From: a virus
IMG/VR virus record: IMGVR_UViG_3300046817_000837
Location: 1-64,000 of that record
Length of the DNA: 64,000 bases
Direction: 5' to 3' (one strand)
Under the pieces are notes generated by a model. The model was given only the letters and a program-made list of their open reading frames with translations. It searched no databases and was not told where the DNA came from. The position numbers and the translations under genes were made by a program. Below are positions 2,468-17,826 of this stretch, in pieces (positions within the stretch are counted from its first letter, which is position 1; each line of letters starts with the position of its first letter).

Positions 2468-3445
2468 ATGAGAATCCTCGTGACCGGTGGGGCCGGGTTC
2501 CTCGGGAGCAGCCTCGTCCGCCGCCTGGCCGGGGAAGGTCATGAGGTACGGGTCCTTGACGACCTGAGCCGCGGTGACCGGGAGCGGCTCCGCGGCGTGC
2601 CGTGCACGCTCATTGAAGGCGACGTGCGAAACTCGGCAGACGTCCTGACCGCGATGCACGGCTGCGACATGGTGGCGCACCTGGCTTACCTCCAGGGCAC
2701 CCAGACGTTCTACGCCGAGCCGCGCGCTGTCCTCGACGTTGCGCTGCGCGGCATCCTCAACGTGCTGCGCGGCTGCGAGGTCACCGGCTGCGGGGACCTG
2801 CTCCTGGTGTCCTCCTCCGAGGCGTACCAGGTGGCCCCGCAGGTGCCCACCCCGGAGGACATCCCCCTCGTCGTCCCGGACGTGCTCAATGCCCGGTACA
2901 GCTACGGCGGCGGCAAGATCGCCTGCGAGCTGGCCGTGCTGGCCTGGGAGCGGGCAGGGGTACTGGACCGGGTGGTGATCGCCAGGCCGCACAACGTCTA
3001 CGGTCCTGACATGGGCCGGGAGCACGTTATCCCGGAGTTCTGCAACCGGATGGACGAGCTGATCCCGCAGTACCCGAAGGGGGGCGTCATCCCGTTCCCC
3101 ATCCAGGGCACCGGCCAGGAGACCCGGTCGTTCTGCTACATCGATGACTGCACGGCCCAGCTGAGCCTGCTCGCCGGCCAGGGCACCCCCGGCGGCGTCT
3201 ACCACGTGGGCACCATGGACGAGCGCACGGTCGCGGACGTTGCCGTTGCCGTGGGCCGGCGCTATGGCCGTGAGGTCAAGGTCATGCCGGGCAAGCTGGC
3301 CAAGGGGTCGCCGCCGCGCAGGCTGCCGGACACGGCGAAGATCCGGGCGCTGGGAACCTGGCCGGAGACCTCGTTCGAGGACGGCCTGGCCGAGACGGCA
3401 GCCTGGTACCAGGCGCACAGCCTCCTGCCGCGGCAGGCTTGGTGA
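2468..3445 (+). CDS. NAD-dependent sugar epimerase/dehydratase (extended SDR)
   Basis: 325 residues, the usual length for NDP-sugar epimerases/dehydratases. The Rossmann loop GGAGFLG lies at residues 7-13. The strand LLLVSSSEAY carries the catalytic Ser, and YSYGGGK holds the Tyr-xxx-Lys pair. RPHNVYGP is the typical substrate-side motif, and YIDDC plus GGVYHVG follow near the C-terminus. It probably converts a nucleotide-activated hexose, feeding the methyltransferase, cupin and glycosyltransferases downstream. Its TGA overlaps the next GTG (GTGA). Exact substrate is not readable. Confidence 0.9.
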   Translation: MRILVTGGAGFLGSSLVRRLAGEGHEVRVLDDLSRGDRERLRGVPCTLIEGDVRNSADVLTAMHGCDMVAHLAYLQGTQTFYAEPRAVLDVALRGILNVLRGCEVTGCGDLLLVSSSEAYQVAPQVPTPEDIPLVVPDVLNARYSYGGGKIACELAVLAWERAGVLDRVVIARPHNVYGPDMGREHVIPEFCNRMDELIPQYPKGGVIPFPIQGTGQETRSFCYIDDCTAQLSLLAGQGTPGGVYHVGTMDERTVADVAVAVGRRYGREVKVMPGKLAKGSPPRRLPDTAKIRALGTWPETSFEDGLAETAAWYQAHSLLPRQAW

Positions 3446-6690: not shown

Positions 6691-7412
6691 GGGACCTGCT
6701 GGTCGCCGTGCCCAGCCGGGGACGCCCTGCGAGCATCGCCCGGCTTGCGCAGGCGATGAAGGACACCTGCACGGCGGACACCGTGCTGGCGGTCGGCCTG
6801 GACGACGACGACGAGGGCCAGTACCCGCGGCTGCCCGGCGTGGAGTACGAGGTGCGCTCCGGGCTGCGCCGGGTCACCGCGTGGACCAATGAGCTGGCCG
6901 TCCCCCGGGCCGGGCAGTACCGGGCGGTCGGCTCCCTCGGCGATGACAACGTGCCGCGCACGCCCGGCTGGGACACGGCCATCCTCAAGGCCCTGGAGAG
7001 CACGCCGTTCGCATTCGGCAACGACCTGTACCCGCGGGACCCCGGGTCGATGAGCTGCCACATCTTCATGCGCAGTGAGGTGGTGCAGGCCCTCGGCTAC
7101 GCGGGGGCGCCGACGATCTCGCACATGTACGTGGACGTGGGCTGGTTCGCCTGGGGCACTGCCTGCGGGATCACGTACCTGGACGACGTGGTCATCGAGC
7201 ACATGCACTACTCCGTGGGCAAGTCCGGCCCGGATGAGGTCTACGCCGCCTCCTACGCGCTGACGAGCACGGACCTCCAGAACTGGCATGCCTACAGCCG
7301 CGGCGGCCAGCTGAACGCCGACATCGCGAAGCTGGGCGGGACGCCGTTCACCCCCGAGTCGCTGTCCGAGTTCAACCGGAGCATCAACGTGCCGGACCAG
7401 TGGCCGGGATGA
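6687..7412 (+). CDS. Glycosyltransferase-like protein (GT-A fold), paralogue B
   Basis: 241 residues; starts MRDLLVAVPSRGRPAS at ATG 6687 (an ATGA overlap), not at the upstream in-frame start. Shares the order of motifs with the gene at 4924: VGLDDDDEGQYP, GSLGDDNVPRTPGWD, HMYVDVGWFAWGTACGITYL, EHMHYSVGK. It carries an extra ~25-residue C-terminal tail. Duplication of this enzyme type inside one operon suggests successive transfers onto one glycan. Confidence 0.75.
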   Translation: MRDLLVAVPSRGRPASIARLAQAMKDTCTADTVLAVGLDDDDEGQYPRLPGVEYEVRSGLRRVTAWTNELAVPRAGQYRAVGSLGDDNVPRTPGWDTAILKALESTPFAFGNDLYPRDPGSMSCHIFMRSEVVQALGYAGAPTISHMYVDVGWFAWGTACGITYLDDVVIEHMHYSVGKSGPDEVYAASYALTSTDLQNWHAYSRGGQLNADIAKLGGTPFTPESLSEFNRSINVPDQWPG

Positions 7413-8038
7413 CCCAGCCCCTGGTATCGGTGGTTACCCCCACGTGGCAGCGGCACGCGATGCTCATGGACCGCTGCGTCCCGGCCGTGCAGGCGCAGGA
7501 CTATGACAGCGTTGAGCACGTCATCGTCAGCGACGGCCCGGACAGCACGCTGGCCATCGTGCTCGGCATGCTGTGCGGCAAGAACGCCTGGGGCAACGTC
7601 GTCTACCGGGAACTGCCGGAGCATCCCGCCGGCGAGCACTGGGGCCATCATGCCCGGCTGGCCGGCCTGGAGGTGGCCCGCGGGCAGTACGTCACCTACT
7701 GCGATGACGATGACGCCCTCCGGCCCCGGCACTGCGCGCTGATGGCCGCGGCCCTGGACGCGGCCCCGGAGGCGGGCTTTGCCGTGAGCCGCATGACGTG
7801 CCACGGCGGCCCGCACGAGTCGGTGACCGGCTGGGGACCGCTGGCCTGCGGCAACGTGGGAACCCCGATGATCATGCACCGCCGGGAGATCCTGGCGCAC
7901 GGGACCTGGGGGCCGGCGTCCTTCACCGAGGACTGGGACCTCGTGGAGCGCTGGCTGGACGCGGGAGTCAGCTACGTGAGCGTGGACGCGGAGACCAGCG
8001 ATGCCTGGCCCTCCCTGTACAGGCAGGGGCAGCAATGA
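7409..8038 (+). CDS. Glycosyltransferase family 2 protein
   Basis: 209 residues from ATG 7409, overlapping the previous TGA. Clear GT2 pattern: PLVSVVTPTWQRHAMLMDRC, HVIVSDGPDS, HWGHHARLAGLEVARGQYVT then YCDDDDALRP (metal-binding DxD). GNVGTPMIMHRREIL and TEDWDLVERWLDAG are the acceptor-site helix and catalytic-base region (ED). This is the most typical GT2 in the island. Cytoplasmic; donor unknown. Confidence 0.85.
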   Translation: MTQPLVSVVTPTWQRHAMLMDRCVPAVQAQDYDSVEHVIVSDGPDSTLAIVLGMLCGKNAWGNVVYRELPEHPAGEHWGHHARLAGLEVARGQYVTYCDDDDALRPRHCALMAAALDAAPEAGFAVSRMTCHGGPHESVTGWGPLACGNVGTPMIMHRREILAHGTWGPASFTEDWDLVERWLDAGVSYVSVDAETSDAWPSLYRQGQQ

Positions 8039-9875: not shown

Positions 9876-10084
9876 AGTCCCGCGTCACGCTGGAGCCGTC
9901 TGAGCTCAGTGAGGACGGACGGGTCATCGAAGCCTGGATCAGCGTCGAGCGCCTCGGTGACTGCGACGATGACGCTACGGACCGGGACCTGTTCCTGTCC
10001 CCGGAGGAGATGCAGTTCCTGTACCAGGGGATGAGGCGCTACTACGAGGACGGCGTGTGGACGACCGGGACGGTGGAGTGGTGA
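9872..10084 (+). CDS. Hypothetical small acidic protein
   Basis: 70 residues, GTG start overlapping the preceding TGA. Reads KSRVTLEPSELSEDGRVIEA then ISVERLGDCDDDATDRDLFL and ends in a helix with MQFLYQGMRRYYEDGVW. Small, acidic, no known motif. Its stop overlaps the dCMP deaminase start, so the two are coupled. Confidence 0.55.
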   Translation: MKSRVTLEPSELSEDGRVIEAWISVERLGDCDDDATDRDLFLSPEEMQFLYQGMRRYYEDGVWTTGTVEW

Positions 10085-10542
10085 GCGCCAAGTGGGACGA
10101 GCGGTACCTGAACCTGGCCACGCTGGTGTCGTACTGGAGCAAGGACCGCAGTACGAAGGTCGGCTGCGTGATCGTGGGCGAGGCCGGCCAGGTGCTCTCC
10201 ACCGGGTACAACGGCTTCCCGCGCGGCATTGGCGACGATGTAGCGCAACGGCACGCTCGCCCGGCCAAGTACCTGTGGACCGAGCACGCTGAGCGGAATG
10301 CCGTCTATAACGCGGCCCGGACGGGCACGTCCCTGCTCGGGTCGTCGCTGTACCTGCCGTGGTTCCCCTGCGCGGACTGCGCCAGGGCCATCATCCAGTC
10401 GGGGATAGCCGTCCTCGTGGTTGTCGAGGTCAAGCGCGGCGACGCCCAGTGGGATGAGAGCATCGCGGTCAGCAAGGAGATGCTCGCGGAGGCCGGAGTC
10501 ATTGTCCGCTGGCACGAGCCGGGGGTGAGCGCGAGCGCGTGA
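10081..10542 (+). CDS. dCMP deaminase-family protein
   Basis: 153 residues from GTG 10081. Typical zinc-dependent deoxycytidylate deaminase: TKVGCVIVGEAGQVLSTGYN, then TEHAERNAVYNAA holding the zinc His and catalytic Glu (HAE), and PWFPCADCARAIIQSGI holding the two zinc Cys (PCxxC). The enzyme makes dUMP from dCMP and supports thymidylate supply for phage replication. Length is normal for the family. Placement inside a glycan operon is odd and may simply reflect operon mixing. Confidence 0.92.
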   Translation: MSAKWDERYLNLATLVSYWSKDRSTKVGCVIVGEAGQVLSTGYNGFPRGIGDDVAQRHARPAKYLWTEHAERNAVYNAARTGTSLLGSSLYLPWFPCADCARAIIQSGIAVLVVVEVKRGDAQWDESIAVSKEMLAEAGVIVRWHEPGVSASA

Positions 10543-10706: not shown

Positions 10707-11095
10707 GCGGCTGCCAGCGGGAGGAGAGGCCAGTGCATGAGGTCAAGGTCACCGGCAACATCATGGCGGACGGCGTCGATATCTGGGTGACGATGAAGTT
10801 CGAGGGATCGCCGCGTCGTATCCTGCACTTCCGGGAGGGCCTTCCGGACTGGGACGAGGCGGACGGGACCGCGCAGCCCCCGACGATGACGCTGCCTGAT
10901 GACGCGGGCCGGGCGCTGCTGGAGCAGCTGCTACGGCATTACGCCGGGTCGCAGGACCTGCACACGGTCCGCGCTGACCTGGTGCACGAGCGCAAGCGCG
11001 TTGACAATCTCATCAGCGCGCTCACGCAGGCGCTGGCCGTGACCATTCAGCAGCGTATTACAGTGTCTTCTCGTGAGGATCTTCGCAGGCCATGA
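10703..11095 (+). CDS. Hypothetical protein
   Basis: 130 residues from ATG 10703 (ATGA overlap). The N-terminal half is beta-rich (VHEVKVTGNIMADGVDIWVT, RRILHFREGLPDW). The C-terminal half is helical (GRALLEQLLRHYAGSQDL, ERKRVDNLISALTQALAV). Its last 23 nt overlap the start of the glycosyltransferase at 11073. No family recognised. Confidence 0.55.
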   Translation: MSGCQREERPVHEVKVTGNIMADGVDIWVTMKFEGSPRRILHFREGLPDWDEADGTAQPPTMTLPDDAGRALLEQLLRHYAGSQDLHTVRADLVHERKRVDNLISALTQALAVTIQQRITVSSREDLRRP

Positions 11096-12146
11096 TGGTG
11101 GGTCAGGCTGCATGTACTACCGGATCAAGGTCCCCCTGGAGGAGCTGGCCCGGCACGGTCATGAGGTGACCTTCCGCTCCGGCGGGAATGAGGAGGGTAA
11201 CCGGCCCATCACCCTGGCGGAGATGGCCGAGCATGACGTGGTGATCGGGCAGCGGTTCAATCACTACGCGGGCATGGGCACCTGGCGCCGCGCCCGCGGG
11301 CCGTCCAGCCGGCTGGTCTACGAGATTGATGACGACGTCTTCTCCGTGACCCCGGTCAACTGGCAGGCGTACCACGTCTACAGCCAGCCGGAGGTCCGCG
11401 AGGCTGTCATGCACCAGGCCCAGGTATCGGACCTGGTGACCGTGACCACGGAGCACCTGGCCGCGGTGATGCGCGAGCACACCGGCAACGGCAACGTCCT
11501 GGCGCTGCCGAACTGCGTCCCCGGCTGGGTGCTGGACATGGAGCGCAGGCCCCGGCAGCGCCCGGCGATCGGCTGGGCGGGCGGCGCCAGCCACGGCAGC
11601 GACGTCGGGCTGCTCGTCAGCCCCGTGCGCCGGTTCCTGAAGCGGTTCCCCGGCTGGGACTTCCAGCTTGGCGGCACGGACTTCCGGGAGACCTTCGCCC
11701 GGGAGGGGTCGCCGCGCGGGAGGCTGCTGCACGCCCGGTGGGTGCCGGTCTGCGAGGACGCGCGGGGCTATTACGAGACCGCGGACTTCGACATCGGCCT
11801 GGCCCCGCTGGCGGGAACCCCGTTTGACCTGTCGAAGTCCTGCGTCAAGGTACTGGAGTACGCGGCCCGGGGCATTCCCTCGATCGCCAGTGACTGCGAG
11901 GTTTACCGGTCGTTCATCCGCCATGGCGAGAACGGCTTCCTGGTGAAGAGGGACCATGAGTGGCTGAAGTACGCATCCGAGCTGGCCAGCGACGGGGGCC
12001 TGCGGCTGGCGATGGGCCAGGCAGCGCGGGACACGGCGCGGGAGTGGACGATCGAGGCGAATTACCACCTATGGGAGCAGGCGTACCGGAGCCTGTTTAA
12101 GGTCAAGTCTCTTAGCGTATTATGGCCTTCGTGCGCGAGCCAGTAG
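11073..12146 (+). CDS. Glycosyltransferase, GT4-like (GT-B fold)
   Basis: 357 residues from GTG 11073. N-terminal part MRIFAGHDGGSGCMYYRIKV with PLEELARHGHEVTF and LVYEIDDDVFSV matches phage GT-B enzymes. The C-terminal donor half has PAIGWAGGASHGSDVGLL, DFDIGLAPLAGTPFDLSKSC and KVLEYAARGIPSIASD (the E-x7-E-like nucleotide-sugar segment), then GENGFLVKRD. The last ~12 residues are encoded in the AT-richer segment leading into the RuvC nuclease gene. The natural C-terminus may therefore have been replaced when the nuclease-CRISPR locus inserted; this is inference. Confidence 0.85.
   Translation: MRIFAGHDGGSGCMYYRIKVPLEELARHGHEVTFRSGGNEEGNRPITLAEMAEHDVVIGQRFNHYAGMGTWRRARGPSSRLVYEIDDDVFSVTPVNWQAYHVYSQPEVREAVMHQAQVSDLVTVTTEHLAAVMREHTGNGNVLALPNCVPGWVLDMERRPRQRPAIGWAGGASHGSDVGLLVSPVRRFLKRFPGWDFQLGGTDFRETFAREGSPRGRLLHARWVPVCEDARGYYETADFDIGLAPLAGTPFDLSKSCVKVLEYAARGIPSIASDCEVYRSFIRHGENGFLVKRDHEWLKYASELASDGGLRLAMGQAARDTAREWTIEANYHLWEQAYRSLFKVKSLSVLWPSCASQ
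12111..12123 (+). promoter_or_regulatory. Leaderless-type promoter of the RuvC nuclease gene
   Basis: The motif cttagcgtattat contains TATTAT at 12118-12123, exactly 7 nt before an in-frame GTG at 12131. That is the spacing of a leaderless transcript whose first base is the start codon. The 10-mer cttagcgtat recurs at 49625-49634, and gtctcttagagtat (one mismatch over 14) occurs at 60181-60194. No SD precedes either possible start. Confidence 0.5.
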
Positions 12147-13906
12147 CCAGGCAGTACCGTTACCGGGCCTATCCCGATGAGGAGCAGGCTGACCTCCTGG
12201 ACTTCTACGCAGCGGGCGCCCGCGCGTTCTGGAATAAGAACGTCGCGTGGCTGCGCGCCATGGAGGGAAGTGAGGGGCATGACGACCTTGGCGCTGGCCG
12301 CCAGCTGAGCGAGGCTTACGCTTACCTCGCCAGCGTGCCCGGCATCGCTGAGGCCCTGAAGAGCAGGAAGCATCCGGAGCATGAGCGCTGGACGGCCTTC
12401 CTGCGAAAGGCAGAAAGGCCGCGCCAGCCCGGCTGGCATGCGTGGACGCGGCATTACGGGGGTGCCAGGCTCCGCGGGCAGCTGAGCGGGAACTTCTCTG
12501 CCGCCGTGCACGCTGCGCGGGAGAGCGGGATGACGTTCTGGCACGGGGGCGAGCAGCACCCGGTCTCGGCGGTCCCGTCGAAGGTCCTGCACGGGGCGTG
12601 CGGGAGCAAGGGCCAGCTCAAGGCCGCCGTGGACGCTGTCATGAAGAAGCGCGCCGCTGGCAAGCGCGCAGAGCTGCCCCGCTGGCGTGCCCGGCATGAG
12701 AGCCAGAACCTGCGCTGGCAAGTCCAGGATGGTCCCCGGAACGCGACCCGGGAGTCCCTGGTGACGGTAACGGGCACGCGGCACGCCACCGTGCCGCTGG
12801 TAACGACGCGCGGGCACGAGGGTAATAAGAGCCTGCGCATCCGCTATCATCGCGAGCTCCCCGCGGACGCCTCAGTGTCCTTCATGCAGGTGACCTGGAA
12901 TCCGGGGACCGGCTGCTACTTCGTGACGCTCACGCTGACGACCGCGCAGTACGAGGTTCCGGCCACGACGGGCATGGCCGGCATCGACCGGGGCATCGTA
13001 AAGGCTGCTGTCACTTCGGACGGGGAGTACTACGATTCTCCGGGACTGAACCAGGGGCGCCGTCGCCGCGAGCTCCTGCTCCAGCAGTCCCTTGACTGGA
13101 AGCGCCGCGTGCTGCCGTGCAAGGGCCGGTGCGCGCACGAGCCAGGGCAGTGCTGGCGCACGTCACTACGGTATGCACGGGTCGTGACGGCCCGGCAGCG
13201 GCTCCTGGACGCCCAGGAGGACCTCATCGATGACGGGGCGCACAAATTCTCCCGGGCTATCGCCCGCCGGTACGCGGTCGTCGTGCTTGAGGACCTGGCG
13301 AACCTGATGACGGCGTCCACGGCGAAGGGCACGGTAGCCGCCCCCGGCGTGAGCGTGCGCGCCGCCGCCGGACGCAACCGGGAGGTACGCGCGGCTAACT
13401 GGGGGCGCATTGAGCAGTACCTGGGGTATAAGGCAGGGCAGCTCCTCGGCGTCCCGGCGCCGTATACGTCGCGGACATGCCCGCGATGCGGGTATGTTAG
13501 CGTCATGAACCGGCCCTCCCAGGCGGAGTTCCGGTGCGGGTCCTGCGGACTCAGCGGCAACGCTGACGTGATCGCGGCCGGCAATATCGTTAATGCAGGG
13601 AAAACCGCCCGCGCGCTGCGGGATAACGGGCAGGGATCGTCCTCCGGGATTAACCGGGGGCCTGGCGCTAGCCGGGAGCCTGCCAACACTCACAACTTTA
13701 CAGTGGCCCCGGGCGAGCGCTGCGGTAGTGCGCCCGATCCCGGTCAGCGCTCGCAGGCAGGTGAGCAGCCAGGAATCGTTACCGAGCTCGACGGAACGGT
13801 GATCCCGGAGACGTGGGGCATCCCCGGTGCTCGCATCCGCGGGGGAAACCGCAGGTCACGACGGGCGAAAAAGCCGAGCGGTGGCAACACTGCCGGAGCC
13901 GGGTGA
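12122..13906 (+). CDS. Compact TnpB/Cas12-type RuvC nuclease next to CRISPR array
   Basis: 594 residues from ATG 12122; GTG 12131 fits the promoter spacing better and gives a TnpB-like start (REPVARQYRYRAYPDEEQ). The N-terminal half (1-280) is the helical/beta nucleic-acid-recognition region. RuvC-I is GIDRG with D289. RuvC-II is VVVLEDLANL with E390. The zinc ribbon is C453xxC456 and C472xxC475. RuvC-III is NADVIAAGNI with D482. All catalytic acids are present, unlike nuclease-dead relatives. Odd points are a Cys/His cluster (C333, C337, H339, C344) between RuvC-I and II, and a ~100-residue low-complexity tail whose last residues are encoded by CRISPR repeat 1. Length and host suit type V-U effectors (Cas12n or Cas12m-like), but a CRISPR-captured TnpB is equally possible. 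Role: probably RNA-guided DNA cleavage, perhaps against rival phages or plasmids. Confidence 0.9.
   Translation: MAFVREPVARQYRYRAYPDEEQADLLDFYAAGARAFWNKNVAWLRAMEGSEGHDDLGAGRQLSEAYAYLASVPGIAEALKSRKHPEHERWTAFLRKAERPRQPGWHAWTRHYGGARLRGQLSGNFSAAVHAARESGMTFWHGGEQHPVSAVPSKVLHGACGSKGQLKAAVDAVMKKRAAGKRAELPRWRARHESQNLRWQVQDGPRNATRESLVTVTGTRHATVPLVTTRGHEGNKSLRIRYHRELPADASVSFMQVTWNPGTGCYFVTLTLTTAQYEVPATTGMAGIDRGIVKAAVTSDGEYYDSPGLNQGRRRRELLLQQSLDWKRRVLPCKGRCAHEPGQCWRTSLRYARVVTARQRLLDAQEDLIDDGAHKFSRAIARRYAVVVLEDLANLMTASTAKGTVAAPGVSVRAAAGRNREVRAANWGRIEQYLGYKAGQLLGVPAPYTSRTCPRCGYVSVMNRPSQAEFRCGSCGLSGNADVIAAGNIVNAGKTARALRDNGQGSSSGINRGPGASREPANTHNFTVAPGERCGSAPDPGQRSQAGEQPGIVTELDGTVIPETWGIPGARIRGGNRRSRRAKKPSGGNTAGAG
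13713..13754 (+). ncRNA. Candidate scaffold RNA hairpin inside 3' end of nuclease gene
   Basis: gcgagcgctg (13713-13722) is perfectly complementary to cagcgctcgc (13745-13754), and the 22-nt loop can pair further (cgg with ccg). The hairpin lies in the low-complexity 3' end of the nuclease frame, about 130 nt before CRISPR repeat 1. In TnpB loci the omega RNA overlaps the 3' end of the gene, so this is a natural place for a scaffold or tracr-like RNA. RNA production is inference; chance pairing in GC-rich coding DNA is possible. Confidence 0.35.
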
Positions 13907-14704
13907 GTGAGGCGACACGCTCTTGCCGTGCAGCTGGTCAATCTGGCCCTGGTGGCAACACTGCCGGAGCCGGGTGAGTGAGGCGACTGGGCACCGGGCG
14001 AGGCGTTCTGCCCGGCGTTGCCGGTGGCAACACTGCCGGAGCCGGGTGAGTGAGGCGACTGGGCACCGGGCGAGGCGTTCTGCCCGGCGTTGCCGGTGGC
14101 AACACTGCCGGAGCCGGGTGAGTGAGGCGACAGGTGGTGGGACGGGCTGCCCGGGTTGGTCAGCATGGTGGCAACACTGCCGGAGCCGGGTGAGTGAGGC
14201 GACCAGCCCGCGCCGTCGCTCCGGAGAACCTTGTATTCGGTGGCAACACTGCCGGAGCCGGGTGAGTGAGGCGACAAGCAGCAGACGCCGCCGGTGAGCG
14301 TGTCCTCGGGCCGTGGCAACACTGCCGGAGCCGGGTGAGTGAGGCGACTCGGTGCGCCTGCGGCTACGGGTGGCCGGCTTGATCGGTGGCAACACTGCCG
14401 GAGCCGGGTGAGTGAGGCGACGGCTTCCAGGCGTCGGCGAGCCGGACCACCTCGCGCGTGGCAACACTGCCGGAGCCGGGTGAGTGAGGCGACCGCGACT
14501 GCTGCAATGCGCTAGACAAGGCAGGTGGCAACACTGCCGGAGCCGGGTGAGTGAGGCGACAGTGCAGCGCTGATGTCAGCCTGCGCCCGCGACTTGGTGG
14601 CAACACTGCCGGAGCCGGGTGAGTGAGGCGACATCAGGACCGGCCTTACCGGTCGACGCCTCCCGGCGGTGGCAACACTGCCGGAGCCGGGTGAGTGAGG
14701 CGAC
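13881..14704 (+). CRISPR. CRISPR array: 12 identical 36-nt repeats, 11 spacers
   Basis: The repeat begins gtggcaacactgccgg and ends gggtgagtgaggcgac. All 12 copies are identical, at 13881, 13952, 14024, 14096, 14168, 14240, 14313, 14386, 14458, 14525, 14597 and 14669. Spacers are 35, 36, 36, 36, 36, 37, 37, 36, 31, 36 and 36 nt. Spacers 2 and 3 are identical, the rest unique. Repeat 1 contains the stop codon of the nuclease gene, so there is no leader between them and the array probably continues the same transcript. No cas1, cas2 or other adaptation gene is in the window. No spacer was seen to match the window by eye. Confidence 0.97.
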
Positions 14705-14705
14705 T

Positions 14706-14730
14706 GCTGCGGTATCCTGGCCACCGCAGC
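14706..14730 (+). terminator. Hairpin directly after the CRISPR array
   Basis: gctgcggt (14706-14713) pairs perfectly with accgcagc (14723-14730) around a 9-nt loop, one base after the last repeat. It could end the array transcript or protect its 3' end; no T-tract follows. The loop contains tatcct, which also fits a -10 box for the gene at 14746, so a promoter role is an alternative. Confidence 0.45.
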
Positions 14731-14745
14731 CGGGAGGAGCACGTG

Positions 14746-14955
14746 ATGACGCAGGTACCGCAGACGGAGTCCCGCGGCGGCGACAAGCCGGACTGGGGCA
14801 AGGCCGTCGCCGGCGAGCCGCTGCCGCAGCTGGGCGAGGAGTACCCGGAGCCGGACAGCGGGCAGGCCCCGTTGCAGGACGGCCAGCCCTTGCGGCCAGA
14901 GGACAACCGGGGCGTTACGGAGCCTCCCGGCGGCAATGACCCGGAGTCGCAGTAG
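14746..14955 (+). CDS. Hypothetical disordered acidic protein
   Basis: 69 residues from ATG 14746 with SD cgggaggagc. Starts MTQVPQTESRGGDKPDWGKA and is Pro/Glu/Gly-rich throughout, like an unstructured linker protein. It is the first gene after the CRISPR array and overlaps the next start by one base. Function unknown; the position does not by itself link it to the CRISPR locus. Confidence 0.6.
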   Translation: MTQVPQTESRGGDKPDWGKAVAGEPLPQLGEEYPEPDSGQAPLQDGQPLRPEDNRGVTEPPGGNDPESQ

Positions 14956-16738: not shown

Positions 16739-17254
16739 ATGGCCTGGACCGCATCCGCCATCTTCCAGCAGGCGATGCTCAACCCCATCGCCGGGCGCAG
16801 CTGGACTACTGCCGCGCCGACGACGTACTCCTCGCTGTCGGCCGACACGATCAACGTCTCCCTGTTCGGCACGCTGACCCCGGACAAGACTGCCGCCGTG
16901 GGCAGCACCGGGTACAACACGGGCGTCTGGGTCACCGGCTCCGAGATCACTGACGCGACCAACTGGGTGGCGGGCGGCCGGGCGCTGGGCTCCAAGGCGT
17001 TCGCGATCGACACCGGGTCGTCCTCGATCTGCTTCACCGCGGCGAACCTGGCCGGCGGCGGCACGGTCACGCTGACGGCATTCTTCGGCTGCTTCGTCTA
17101 CGATTTCACGATCACGGCAGGCACGGTCGCCAAGCAGGGCCTCTGCTACAACTACTTCGGCGGCTCCCAGACGGTGACGGGCGGCACGTTCACCATCCTC
17201 TGGGCGACCCCGGTCGGCGCGGCCGTCACCGCCGTCTTCAACATCTCGGTGTAG
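16739..17254 (+). CDS. Structural-type protein (beta-rich)
   Basis: 171 residues from ATG 16739. Ser/Thr/Gly-rich beta protein: AWTASAIFQQAMLNPIAGRS, INVSLFGTLTPDKTAAVG, GGGTVTLTAFFGCFVYDFTI, ending AAVTAVFNISV. The composition and position resemble virion decoration or tail-surface proteins. The HNH gene on the opposite strand ends inside its last 100 nt, and its stop marks the edge of that insertion. Role inferred. Confidence 0.55.
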   Translation: MAWTASAIFQQAMLNPIAGRSWTTAAPTTYSSLSADTINVSLFGTLTPDKTAAVGSTGYNTGVWVTGSEITDATNWVAGGRALGSKAFAIDTGSSSICFTAANLAGGGTVTLTAFFGCFVYDFTITAGTVAKQGLCYNYFGGSQTVTGGTFTILWATPVGAAVTAVFNISV

Positions 17255-17826
17255 CCGGCGTGAGCACGGTCCAGGTAGCTGAGCAGGCGGCGGGCACTCG
17301 CCACGTCGTCCTTCAGCAACCCGACCGCCCGGTTGCAGTTCACGCACAGCAGGCCGCGTACGCACTTCCCGCAGGAGTCGGCACCTGGACAGCAAGCGTG
17401 ATCGTGGTCGACGGCGAGCTTGTCTCTCCGGGGGCCGGGATTAAGGCAGATTGCGCATACCCCGTCCTGGGAGGCGAGCATTGCGTCGTAGGCGTCACGG
17501 GTCAGGCGATAGTGCGCCATGAGCCACCAGCTACGCTGCCGCGCCTGGCCGTCCGGCGTCTGGTTGTACTCCTGGCTGTAGCAGCGCACGCACTGGCCTG
17601 TCTTGTACGAGGCGCGTTTTCCGCATGCGCACCTGACCCACTCGTACTCAGGCCGTGGACTGCTGCGCGGGCGCATTTCTATCTCCGAGCGCAGCAGCGA
17701 ATTACGGATAACTGCCCGGTTCACTCCCAGTTGCTCTGCGAGCTGCTTGAGCGTGAGCCGGTCATCAACGTAAAGCTTGGCGATATCCGCGTCTTGCTCC
17801 GTAGAGAACTTTCGTTTGCGTCCCAT
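17152..17826 (-). CDS. HNH homing endonuclease, recombination endonuclease VII type
   Basis: 224 residues on the minus strand. The N-terminal HTH is YVDDRLTLKQLAEQLGVNRA. A first zinc knuckle is VRCACGKRAS...CVRCYSQEY. The endonuclease VII core is GVCAICLNP, KLAVDHDHACCPG, VRGLLCVNCNRAVGLLKDD. Real homology ends near LLSYLDRAHAGY; the last ~30 residues read antisense through the 3' end of the gene at 16739. A TATCAT box (17833-17838) lies 6 nt before the ATG, implying leaderless expression. It is a selfish insertion between two structural genes. Confidence 0.9.
   Translation of the reverse strand: MGRKRKFSTEQDADIAKLYVDDRLTLKQLAEQLGVNRAVIRNSLLRSEIEMRPRSSPRPEYEWVRCACGKRASYKTGQCVRCYSQEYNQTPDGQARQRSWWLMAHYRLTRDAYDAMLASQDGVCAICLNPGPRRDKLAVDHDHACCPGADSCGKCVRGLLCVNCNRAVGLLKDDVASARRLLSYLDRAHAGYTEMLKTAVTAAPTGVAQRMVNVPPVTVWEPPK

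What the first reader, a model, noticed from the sequence alone, without database searches (positions are those of the whole stretch)
12122..14704. Actinophage-borne compact RuvC effector with its own CRISPR array
A single 594-residue TnpB/Cas12-type nuclease with intact D289, E390, D482 and zinc ribbon is followed directly by 12 perfect 36-nt repeats with 31-37-nt spacers, inside a tailed-phage genome. No other cas gene is near. Type V-U effectors are known mainly from bacterial chromosomes and plasmids; phage-borne single-effector systems such as Cas12j are rare. This could be a minimal phage weapon against rival phages or plasmids. Subtype (Cas12n, Cas12m, or a new branch) is open.
Basis: partly seen in the sequence, partly recalled or inferred. 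Interest (0 to 1): 0.95.

Follow-up and report, generated by a model that had tools for sequence, protein, structure and literature searches.

The report
Phage CRISPR nuclease descended from TnpB
A large tailed phage of actinobacteria carries its own small DNA-cutting CRISPR enzyme and a list of guide sequences, one of which matches perfectly the DNA-packaging gene of another phage, so it looks like a weapon against rival phages; the enzyme sits on a branch of its own rather than in a named CRISPR subtype.

Summary
ORF 12122-13906 (594 aa) encodes a TnpB/Cas12-type nuclease with intact D289/E390/D482 and zinc ribbon. Twelve perfect 36-nt repeats with 31-37-nt spacers follow (13881-14704); the stop codon lies inside repeat 1. 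The contig belongs to a tailed actinophage (a matching 158.7-kb contig has terL, portal, major head protein and 33 tRNAs); no Cas1, Cas2 or Y1 TnpA matched.

Spacer 4 matches 36/36 the terminase gene of another virus contig, with TTC on its 5' side. The ten distinct spacers share one codon phase (p=3e-5), as expected if cut from GC-rich genes beside a 5' A/T-A/T-N motif. This points to RNA-guided attack on rival phages.

The protein is a long lone branch among TnpBs. It scores below six of seven CRISPR-less TnpBs on the V-U4 profile, and an AU test rejects grouping with three CRISPR-bearing plasmid Cas12n. Best reading: a separate TnpB-to-CRISPR recruitment carried by a phage, the guide-RNA scaffold perhaps still inside the gene's 3' end (suggestive only). 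Nothing is shown by experiment. Phage-borne miniature type V effectors are already reported, so: new variant of a known kind.

The parts
12122..13906 (+). Effector gene: 594-aa TnpB/Cas12-type RuvC nuclease; stop codon inside repeat 1
   Evidence: ORF; Pfam TNB domain 52.5 bits, cut-off 26.3; NCBIfam guided_TnpB 109.5 bits, cut-off 100; PADLOC best Cas12u4 4e-36; AlphaFold2 model closest to ISDra2 TnpB, Z 20.9
12986..12988 (+). Codon of catalytic D289 (RuvC-I, GIDRG)
   Evidence: invariant in 31-row alignment
13289..13291 (+). Codon of catalytic E390 (RuvC-II, LEDL)
   Evidence: invariant in 31-row alignment
13478..13546 (+). Zinc ribbon C453-x2-C456 ... C472-x2-C475
   Evidence: all four cysteines invariant
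13565..13567 (+). Codon of catalytic D482 (RuvC-III, NAD)
   Evidence: invariant in 31-row alignment
13592..13880 (+). 3' tail of the gene that has lost the coding signature; candidate embedded guide-RNA scaffold (tracrRNA/omega-RNA-like)
   Evidence: GC3-GC2 0.03-0.04 against 0.31 in the body, 2.3% of 649 phage coding windows as low; AlphaFold2 disordered 510-584; same loss in the tails of 3 plasmid Cas12n and 4 TnpB
13629..13684 (+). Candidate RNA three-way junction in the tail (inference)
   Evidence: 76-nt window 13625-13700 z -3.16, 0 of 200 shuffles; z -3.43, best of 196 windows in the ORF but tied with one in the coding body (13463, -3.42); 5 of 900 background windows as low
13687..13693 (+). 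Candidate anti-repeat CACTCAC, complementary to GTGAGTG of the repeat (weak; 7 nt)
   Evidence: unpaired 3' of the junction, pairs with repeat 1 in the fold of 13640-13916; about the top 1% of background windows, so not convincing on its own
13881..14704 (+). CRISPR array: 12 identical 36-nt repeats, 11 spacers (10 distinct)
   Evidence: exact search; repeat families
13988..14095 (+). Spacers 2 and 3, identical (duplicated repeat-spacer unit)
14132..14167 (+). Spacer 4: 36/36 match to terL of virus contig IMGVR_UViG_3300035086_000030, 5' flank TTC
14706..14730 (+). Perfect 8-bp inverted repeat right after the last repeat (GCTGCGGT/ACCGCAGC), no T run; possible transcript end, uncertain
   Evidence: sequence; folding not beyond shuffles, z -0.53

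Best explanation
A tailed actinophage carries a minimal class 2 CRISPR system made of one TnpB-derived nuclease and one array. Shown from sequence: an intact RuvC/zinc-ribbon nuclease with a predicted TnpB fold; a perfect 12-repeat array that begins inside the gene's last codons; one spacer identical to a terminase gene of another phage; and spacers that share one codon phase. Inferred: the array is transcribed with the gene, the repeat-spacer RNAs are loaded (probably with a scaffold RNA encoded in the gene's 3' tail), and the complex recognises targets with a 5' A/T-A/T-N PAM, most likely TTN. It would then cut rival phage DNA in a co-infected or newly infected cell. New spacers, if any are acquired, would have to come through host machinery, as no Cas1/Cas2 was found. 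The effector is best seen as a separate recruitment of a TnpB to a CRISPR array, not as a Cas12n, Cas12m or Cas12f.
For: Array and gene overlap. Intact catalytic residues. TnpB-like fold. Phage hallmark genes terL, portal, protease and major head protein in the 158.7-kb contig, and tape measure in the window; actinophage terL DNA matches. Spacer 4 = 36/36 to terL of another virus contig, TTC at -3..-1 (terL by PHROGs). Spacer GC by position mod 3 is 0.57/0.66/0.88; 9 of 10 distinct spacers peak at the same phase, the tenth ties; phase-rotation p 3.4e-5. Simulated protospacers from 70 gene entries of this phage: 0.61/0.64/0.84 with a TTN PAM, 0.71/0.71/0.71 without a PAM, 0.84/0.60/0.64 with NTT, no phase with TTTN. 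The phase is cleaner from the 5' than from the 3' spacer end. No match of any spacer to this virus's own held DNA with fewer than 11 mismatches. V-U4 profile score below 6 of 7 CRISPR-less TnpBs scored, and AU rejection of a clade with three plasmid Cas12n, p 0.0002.
Against: Only one lineage is known: three contigs with identical arrays, so no spacer turnover is seen. Of five distinct spacers scanned in IMG/VR, only spacer 4 hit anything but its own contigs; five distinct spacers were not scanned. One exact protospacer cannot fix the PAM, and the phase test does not separate TTN from AAN or other WWN motifs. No expression data. No clear tracrRNA: the anti-repeat is not above background and the 150-nt fold scan shows no signal in the tail. 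The best PADLOC family and the best PDB sequence match are Cas12n-type (9j09 is named RdCas12n), and part of the N-terminal expansion is shared with the plasmid Cas12n L019. The branch is very long, so its place in the tree is unsure.
Confidence: 0.72

Rival explanations
1. A divergent member of Cas12n (type V-U4/V-N): same kind of system, tracrRNA in the gene's 3' end, 5'-AAN PAM, on a fast-evolving phage branch.
For: Best PADLOC family is Cas12u4, 122.9 bits over residues 5-516. Best PDB sequence match is RdCas12n, 37.4 bits (name). Part of the N-terminal expansion is shared with the plasmid Cas12n L019. The loss of coding signature in the gene tail is shared with plasmid Cas12n, but also with TnpBs. 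The spacer phase fits AAN as well as TTN. One structured 76-nt window lies in the tail.
Against: A plasmid protein with an array scores 690.7 bits and six of seven CRISPR-less TnpBs score 166-310 bits on the same profile. AU test p 0.0002 against a joint clade with three plasmid Cas12n. The exact protospacer has TTC, not AAN. The structured tail RNA of L019 (z -4.6 in the 150-nt scan; -3.95) is not matched at the same scale.
Confidence: 0.15
2. The array serves a host Cas effector (as phage mini-arrays do), and the TnpB-like gene beside it is an unrelated phage passenger.
For: No Cas1/Cas2 in the phage records. TnpB-like genes occur in 55 of 50,697 phage records at E<=1e-5 to this query. Published viral mini-arrays use host repeats (PMC11656645, section 5).
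Against: Repeat 1 overlaps the gene's end on the same strand. Twelve repeats is not a mini-array of one or two spacers. The repeat was not found with up to 3 mismatches in 396 Actinomycetota genomes, and the array found only weak short matches in phage and plasmid records. The spacer phase implies a PAM on the 5' side with W at -3 and -2, which fits a type V effector but does not exclude type I.
Confidence: 0.1
3. An ordinary transposon TnpB next to a decaying or captured array; no working system.
For: NCBIfam names it guided_TnpB, and the predicted fold is nearest to ISDra2 TnpB.
Against: No Y1 transposase match in the three records. All 12 repeats are identical and the ORF is intact with full RuvC residues. 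The tree places it outside the ordinary TnpB groups sampled.
Confidence: 0.08
4. A working system of the same build, but aimed mainly at host defence or other mobile elements and not at phages (overlaps with the best explanation on mechanism).
For: Nine of ten distinct spacers have no identified target. ICP1's phage-borne CRISPR targets a host anti-phage island (PMC11656645, section 5).
Against: The only identified target is a phage packaging gene.
Confidence: 0.15

Closest known systems
TnpB (IS200/IS605, IS607 family RNA-guided nuclease)
   Same: Predicted fold (ISDra2 TnpB Z 20.9, 328 residues aligned), RuvC and zinc-ribbon residues, NCBIfam guided_TnpB above its cut-off, gene tail without coding signature
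   Different: CRISPR array in place of a transposon end; no Y1 TnpA in the records; longer N-terminal part, and about 17 extra residues in a Cys-rich stretch (C333, C337, C344) absent from the relatives aligned
Cas12n (type V-U4, C2c9)
   Same: Compact single effector beside an array, intact RuvC; best PADLOC family; part of the N-terminal expansion
   Different: Profile score 122.9 against 690.7 bits for the plasmid protein L019; separate in the tree, AU p 0.0002; exact protospacer with TTC where the review gives AAN (PMC11641405, passages)
Viral V-U-type effectors in landfill phages
   Same: Miniature type V nucleases near arrays in virus genomes, including three V-U4 nucleases in one element (PMC12607003, passages)
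Cas12j/CasPhi and CasLambda (phage-borne type V)
   Same: Phage-borne single effector with an array (recalled; CasPhi and CasLambda are named as virus-encoded in PMC12607003)
   Different: Larger and more distant in fold: Z 11.1 for CasPhi-2 (7lyt) and 11.7 for CasLambda2 (9izr), against 20.9 for TnpB
LaTranC (PDB 9jfq)
   Same: Idea of a TnpB tied to CRISPR guides (recalled); fold Z 14.9
   Different: Relation by sequence not tested; its paper was not found in the library
Cas12m (type V-U1/V-M)
   Same: Small effector; 5'-TTN PAM in the review; weak PDB sequence match, 22.2 bits
   Different: No Cas12u1 match at E<=1; Cas12m has an inactivated RuvC (PMC11656645, passages), this one is intact; Z 14.2

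Membership tests
Type V CRISPR-Cas (general) | RuvC nuclease effector with D/E/D residues | tested here: met
   D289, E390, D482 invariant with 30 relatives
Type V CRISPR-Cas (general) | Adjacent CRISPR array with regular repeats and unique spacers | tested here: met
   12 identical repeats, 10 distinct spacers of 11
Type V CRISPR-Cas (general) | Spacers derived from mobile elements, PAM on the 5' side | tested here: met
   Spacer 4 = terL of another virus; 5'-anchored codon phase. One identified target only; the PAM is inferred
Type V CRISPR-Cas (general) | Processed crRNA and RNA-guided DNA cleavage | not testable with these tools
   needs RNA sequencing and assays
Cas12n / V-U4 | Protein nearer to the V-U4 profile than ordinary TnpB are | tested here: not met
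   122.9 bits against 690.7 for plasmid protein L019 and 166-310 for six of seven CRISPR-less TnpBs; the seventh, L109, 72.7. L019's top PADLOC label is PDLC01700 'Cas12f' at 725.2 with Cas12u4 second, so calling it Cas12n is my reading
Cas12n / V-U4 | Common clade with CRISPR-bearing Cas12n | tested here: not met
   AU p 0.000192 in a 60-row tree with three plasmid Cas12n; long branch, no Rothia or Actinomadura Cas12n included
Cas12n / V-U4 | 5'-AAN PAM | tested here: inconclusive
   one exact protospacer with TTC; phase test cannot separate AAN from TTN
Cas12n / V-U4 | tracrRNA inside the cas gene's 3' end | tested here: inconclusive
   tail lost coding signature and one window z -3.4, but no anti-repeat above background and no signal in 150-nt windows
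TnpB | Profile match above curated cut-off | tested here: met
   NF040570 109.5 bits, cut-off 100
TnpB | Resides in a transposon (TnpA, element ends) and takes its guide from the flank | tested here: not met
   no Y1 transposase in three records; putative guides lie in a CRISPR array. Serine TnpA of IS607 and element ends were not tested
Cas12m | Inactivated RuvC and V-U1 profile match | tested here: not met
   intact D/E/D; no Cas12u1 match at E<=1
Cas12f | NCBIfam Cas12f-type profile above cut-off | tested here: not met
   Cas12f2 47.6 bits, cut-off 450. Several PADLOC profiles labelled Cas12f match, best 113.4 bits, and they match TnpBs more strongly
Cas12j / CasLambda | Sequence or fold closer to these than to TnpB | tested here: inconclusive
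   CasPhi-2 26.6 bits by phmmer; Z 11.1-11.7 against 20.9 for TnpB, from a model of mean pLDDT 71.9 built on TnpB rows

The most novel reading that the evidence does not exclude
This is the first seen member of a separate type V lineage that arose when an actinobacterial TnpB was tied to a CRISPR array inside a phage: the guide scaffold still sits in the nuclease gene's own tail, the gene's stop codon lies in the first repeat, and the guides are aimed at packaging genes of rival phages. It would be a caught-in-the-act TnpB-to-CRISPR transition with an inter-phage warfare role, recognising a TTN-type PAM.
Probability: 0.4. Interest if true: 0.82.

Novelty: new variant of a known kind. Interest (0 to 1): 0.62.

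Why it matters
It gives a compact, testable phage-borne effector with an intact nuclease site, an array, one identified target (terL of another phage) and a predicted PAM class, so RNA-guided phage-versus-phage attack in actinobacteria can be assayed directly. Its place outside the Cas12n sampled bears on how often TnpB has been turned into a CRISPR effector. The codon-phase trick, reading a PAM class from spacers without protospacers, may be useful for other GC-rich arrays.

Tried and rejected
Cas12n membership: the first profile hit suggested it, but controls (plasmid proteins with arrays; CRISPR-less TnpBs) reversed that.

tracrRNA by anti-repeat scan: nothing above background on the + strand; a -32 kcal site on the - strand near 12300 lies in a repeat-like stretch of the ORF and is near the background extremes (background minimum -33.0, 0.1% quantile -30.0), so not taken as a tracrRNA. 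The same scan found no clear anti-repeat in the L019 control either, so it is not sensitive. Rfam gave no hit over gathering score in the window; in 13300-14900 only 4 sub-threshold hits. The repeat's own hairpin is not stronger than shuffles (z -1.24).

Self-targeting: best own match 11 mismatches. Target contig G003 holds no other spacer within 11 mismatches. The listed phage and plasmid matches of the array have E of 0.3 or more (62 plasmid records were not listed); I read them as chance, or for spacer 4 as homologous terL genes of Streptomyces phages: 31/36 on an aligned stretch that includes 2 nt of the repeat, 5' flank AAC.

Close relatives: exact-peptide scans found only the same virus in IMG/VR and no confirmed relative in GTDB contigs. 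Alignment-based scans found, apart from the same virus, only relatives of 23-51% best-segment identity. Arrays beside relatives: 3 of 87 loci, all Streptomyces plasmids; L036 holds a four-copy 86-nt-period repeat about 3.6 kb from its TnpB that I did not examine. Loci from the genome search mostly have only 1.5-kb flanks, so an array further off would be missed. The Cas12u1 search in 198 genomes found nothing, nor did its controls, so it says nothing.

The control for the phase test (22 plasmid Cas12n spacers) first gave phase 1 with the spacer start set after GACGAC; after moving the start by the near-constant CG it gave phase 2, p 0.011. That boundary was chosen after seeing the data, so the control is weak. 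In the simulation some genes count twice because the two contigs overlap.

Tree rows dropped: 24 of 84 (long branches, odd composition, near copies). With all 84 rows a short search joined the protein to viral L108-L110 at SH-aLRT 82, flagged as long branches meeting. The 31-row alignment given to AlphaFold2 held only TnpB-like relatives, which may pull the model towards TnpB.

Full report
WHAT IS THERE. The window is part of an IMG/VR virus record of 88,635 bases. At 12122-13906 on the + strand lies one ORF of 594 codons. From 13881 to 14704 stand 12 exact copies of a 36-nt repeat with 11 spacers of 31-37 nt; spacers 2 and 3 are identical. The ORF does not stop before the array: its last seven codons, part of an eighth, and the stop lie in repeat 1. 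It starts 25 nt inside the upstream ORF, a phage glycosyltransferase (phrog_7162, 151 bits).

THE CARRIER IS A TAILED ACTINOPHAGE. Two other IMG/VR contigs hold the locus at 100% over 17,782 bases. One is 158,651 bases long and, where compared, is colinear with the window's record and runs on past both its ends (100% over the last 24,970 bases, 98.9% over the first 661). Its left part encodes a terminase large subunit, portal, head protease and major head protein, and the window a tape-measure protein. The terL region matches Mycobacterium, Gordonia, Rhodococcus and Arthrobacter phages at DNA level (32 records; the ten listed lie in terminase genes). The same contig carries 33 tRNA genes and a Ku-like protein. 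No Cas1, Cas2 or Y1 transposase matched in the three records; these may be incomplete, so absence is not proven.

THE PROTEIN. Pfam finds the Cas12f1-like TNB domain over its cut-off, the HTH_OrfB domain just over, and OrfB below it. NCBIfam gives guided_TnpB at 109.5 bits (cut-off 100) and Cas12f2, C2c8 and others far below their cut-offs. PADLOC's best is Cas12u4, that is V-U4, at 122.9 bits. The residues D289, E390, D482 and the four zinc cysteines are invariant in 31 sequences. An AlphaFold2 model (mean pLDDT 71.9; residues 510-584 disordered) is nearest to ISDra2 TnpB (Z 20.9, 3.8 A over 328), then Cas12f 15.9, Cas12p 15.6, LaTranC 14.9, Cas12m 14.2 and RdCas12n 12.1 on a partial chain. 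Against TnpB relatives the protein has an N-terminal expansion between about residues 47 and 160, part of which the plasmid Cas12n L019 shares, and about 17 extra residues around C333, C337 and C344.

IS IT CAS12N? No, by the tests I could run. A tblastn against plasmids led to three Streptomyces plasmid proteins, annotated only as TnpB, that have arrays behind them (L019, L124, L125). The one scored, L019, reaches 690.7 bits on the V-U4 profile, and 725.2 on a PADLOC profile labelled Cas12f; I call them Cas12n on the V-U4 score. Of seven CRISPR-less TnpB relatives scored, six reach 166-310 bits and one 72.7, so the window's protein is no nearer to V-U4 than ordinary TnpBs are. In a careful tree of 60 rows an AU test rejects a clade of the window's protein with the three plasmid Cas12n (p 0.00019). 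In that tree the plasmid Cas12n group with TnpBs that have no array within the DNA held. The branch is very long (2.0 changes per site), so I claim only separation from these Cas12n, not an exact sister group. Evidence the other way: the best PDB sequence match is RdCas12n at 37.4 bits, and the shared N-terminal piece. Arrays stood beside 3 of the 87 relatives' loci, all three being these plasmids.

WHAT THE SPACERS SAY. A degenerate pattern for spacer 4 hit, besides its own contigs, one virus contig, IMGVR_UViG_3300035086_000030. The match is 36 of 36 and the 5' flank is TTC. It lies in a 445-aa ORF that PHROGs calls terminase large subunit, next to a portal gene; the three phage records similar to this stretch are Streptomyces phages. 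Spacers 2/3 and 8, and the first 29 nt of spacers 6 and 1, gave no other hit; 5, 7, 9, 10 and 11 were not scanned in IMG/VR. All spacers were compared with the virus's own held DNA (no match under 11 mismatches), and the whole array with phage and plasmid records (listed matches weak, E 0.3 or more).

A PAM READ FROM CODON PHASE. In the ten distinct spacers GC content by position (mod 3 from the 5' end) is 0.57, 0.66, 0.88; nine of ten peak at the third position and the tenth ties. Rotating phases at random reaches this with p 3.4e-5. So the spacers come from GC-rich protein-coding DNA and were cut out in a fixed register. Protospacers drawn from 70 gene entries of this phage behind TTN, AAN, ATN or TAN give 0.61-0.65/0.60-0.64/0.82-0.84; without a PAM 0.71 throughout; with NTT the peak moves to the first position; TTTN gives no clear phase. 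The register is cleaner from the 5' than from the 3' end. This is what a 5' PAM with A/T at -3 and -2 would give; with the TTC of spacer 4 the simplest reading is 5'-TTN. A control on 22 spacers of the plasmid Cas12n (AAN in the review PMC11641405, passages) gave the same phase at p 0.011, but only after the spacer boundary was moved, so it is weak support.

THE GUIDE RNA. After the zinc ribbon the gene loses its coding signature: GC3 minus GC2 is 0.04 in the last 99 codons against 0.31 in the body; 2.3% of 649 windows of other phage genes are as low. The same loss is seen after the zinc ribbon in three plasmid Cas12n and in four of five TnpBs tried (in the fifth the ribbon's end was not located); in TnpB and Cas12n the tail is thought to encode guide RNA (Cas12n: PMC11641405, passages; TnpB: recalled). 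A 76-nt window, 13625-13700, folds into a three-way junction with z -3.2 to -3.4. It is the best of 196 windows in the ORF, but a window in the coding body (13463) ties, and 5 of 900 background windows are as low. Just 3' of it lies CACTCAC, complementary to GTGAGTG in the repeat; that pairing is only at about the top 1% of background. The Cas12n control is more strongly structured (z -4.6 in the 150-nt scan), and at that window size the phage tail shows nothing (best -1.3). So an embedded scaffold is plausible and unproven; a crRNA-only system is the alternative.

HOW IT MOST LIKELY WORKS. Shown: gene, array, target identity of one spacer, spacer register. Inferred: co-transcription, loading of crRNA (with or without the tail scaffold), PAM-dependent cutting of rival phage DNA. 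Without Cas1/Cas2 the phage probably inherits its guides or borrows host adaptation; identical arrays in three contigs show no turnover.

WHAT IS KNOWN. [quoted passage not shown] its figure legend lists TerS and TerL among the phage proteins shown (PMC11656645, section 5 read). PMC12607003 (passages) reports 161 putative viral type V nuclease ORFs and one element with three V-U4 nucleases. Searches for Cas12n, V-U4, TranC and actinobacteriophage with Cas12 (listings) showed no paper on this phage or array; that covers only the open-licence library. Hence 'new variant of a known kind'.

Noticed in passing
L019 2608-4412, L124 1608-4210, L125 1608-3575: Three Streptomyces plasmids carry a protein annotated only as TnpB followed by arrays (4, about 16 and 7 repeats, GTCTGGCCCGGGCGCGTGAGGGACGAC); L019's scores 690.7 bits as V-U4 (Cas12n) and 725.2 on a profile labelled Cas12f.
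   Followed up: partly
L004 3648-7985 (158.7-kb contig of the same virus): A cluster of 33 tRNA genes on one strand; none in the window itself.
   Followed up: no
L008 11897-12697 (minus): Ku-like DNA end-binding protein (phrog_4873, 238 bits) in the same virus.
   Followed up: no
window 2468-3445, 7400-8038, 11073-12146: Nucleotide-sugar epimerase and two glycosyltransferase-like genes in the run of genes leading up to the effector: perhaps a sugar-modification cassette.
   Followed up: no
window 10057-10542 and 17152-17826 (minus): dCMP deaminase and an endonuclease VII/HNH protein near the effector; the latter is on the opposite strand to its neighbours.
   Followed up: no
window 12303-12325: A stretch inside the effector ORF resembles the 3' half of the CRISPR repeat, seen through the anti-repeat scan; perhaps chance.
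   Followed up: partly
L036 about 664-940: Four copies of a repeat with period 86 about 3.6 kb from a TnpB in Saccharopolyspora spinosa; not examined.
   Followed up: no
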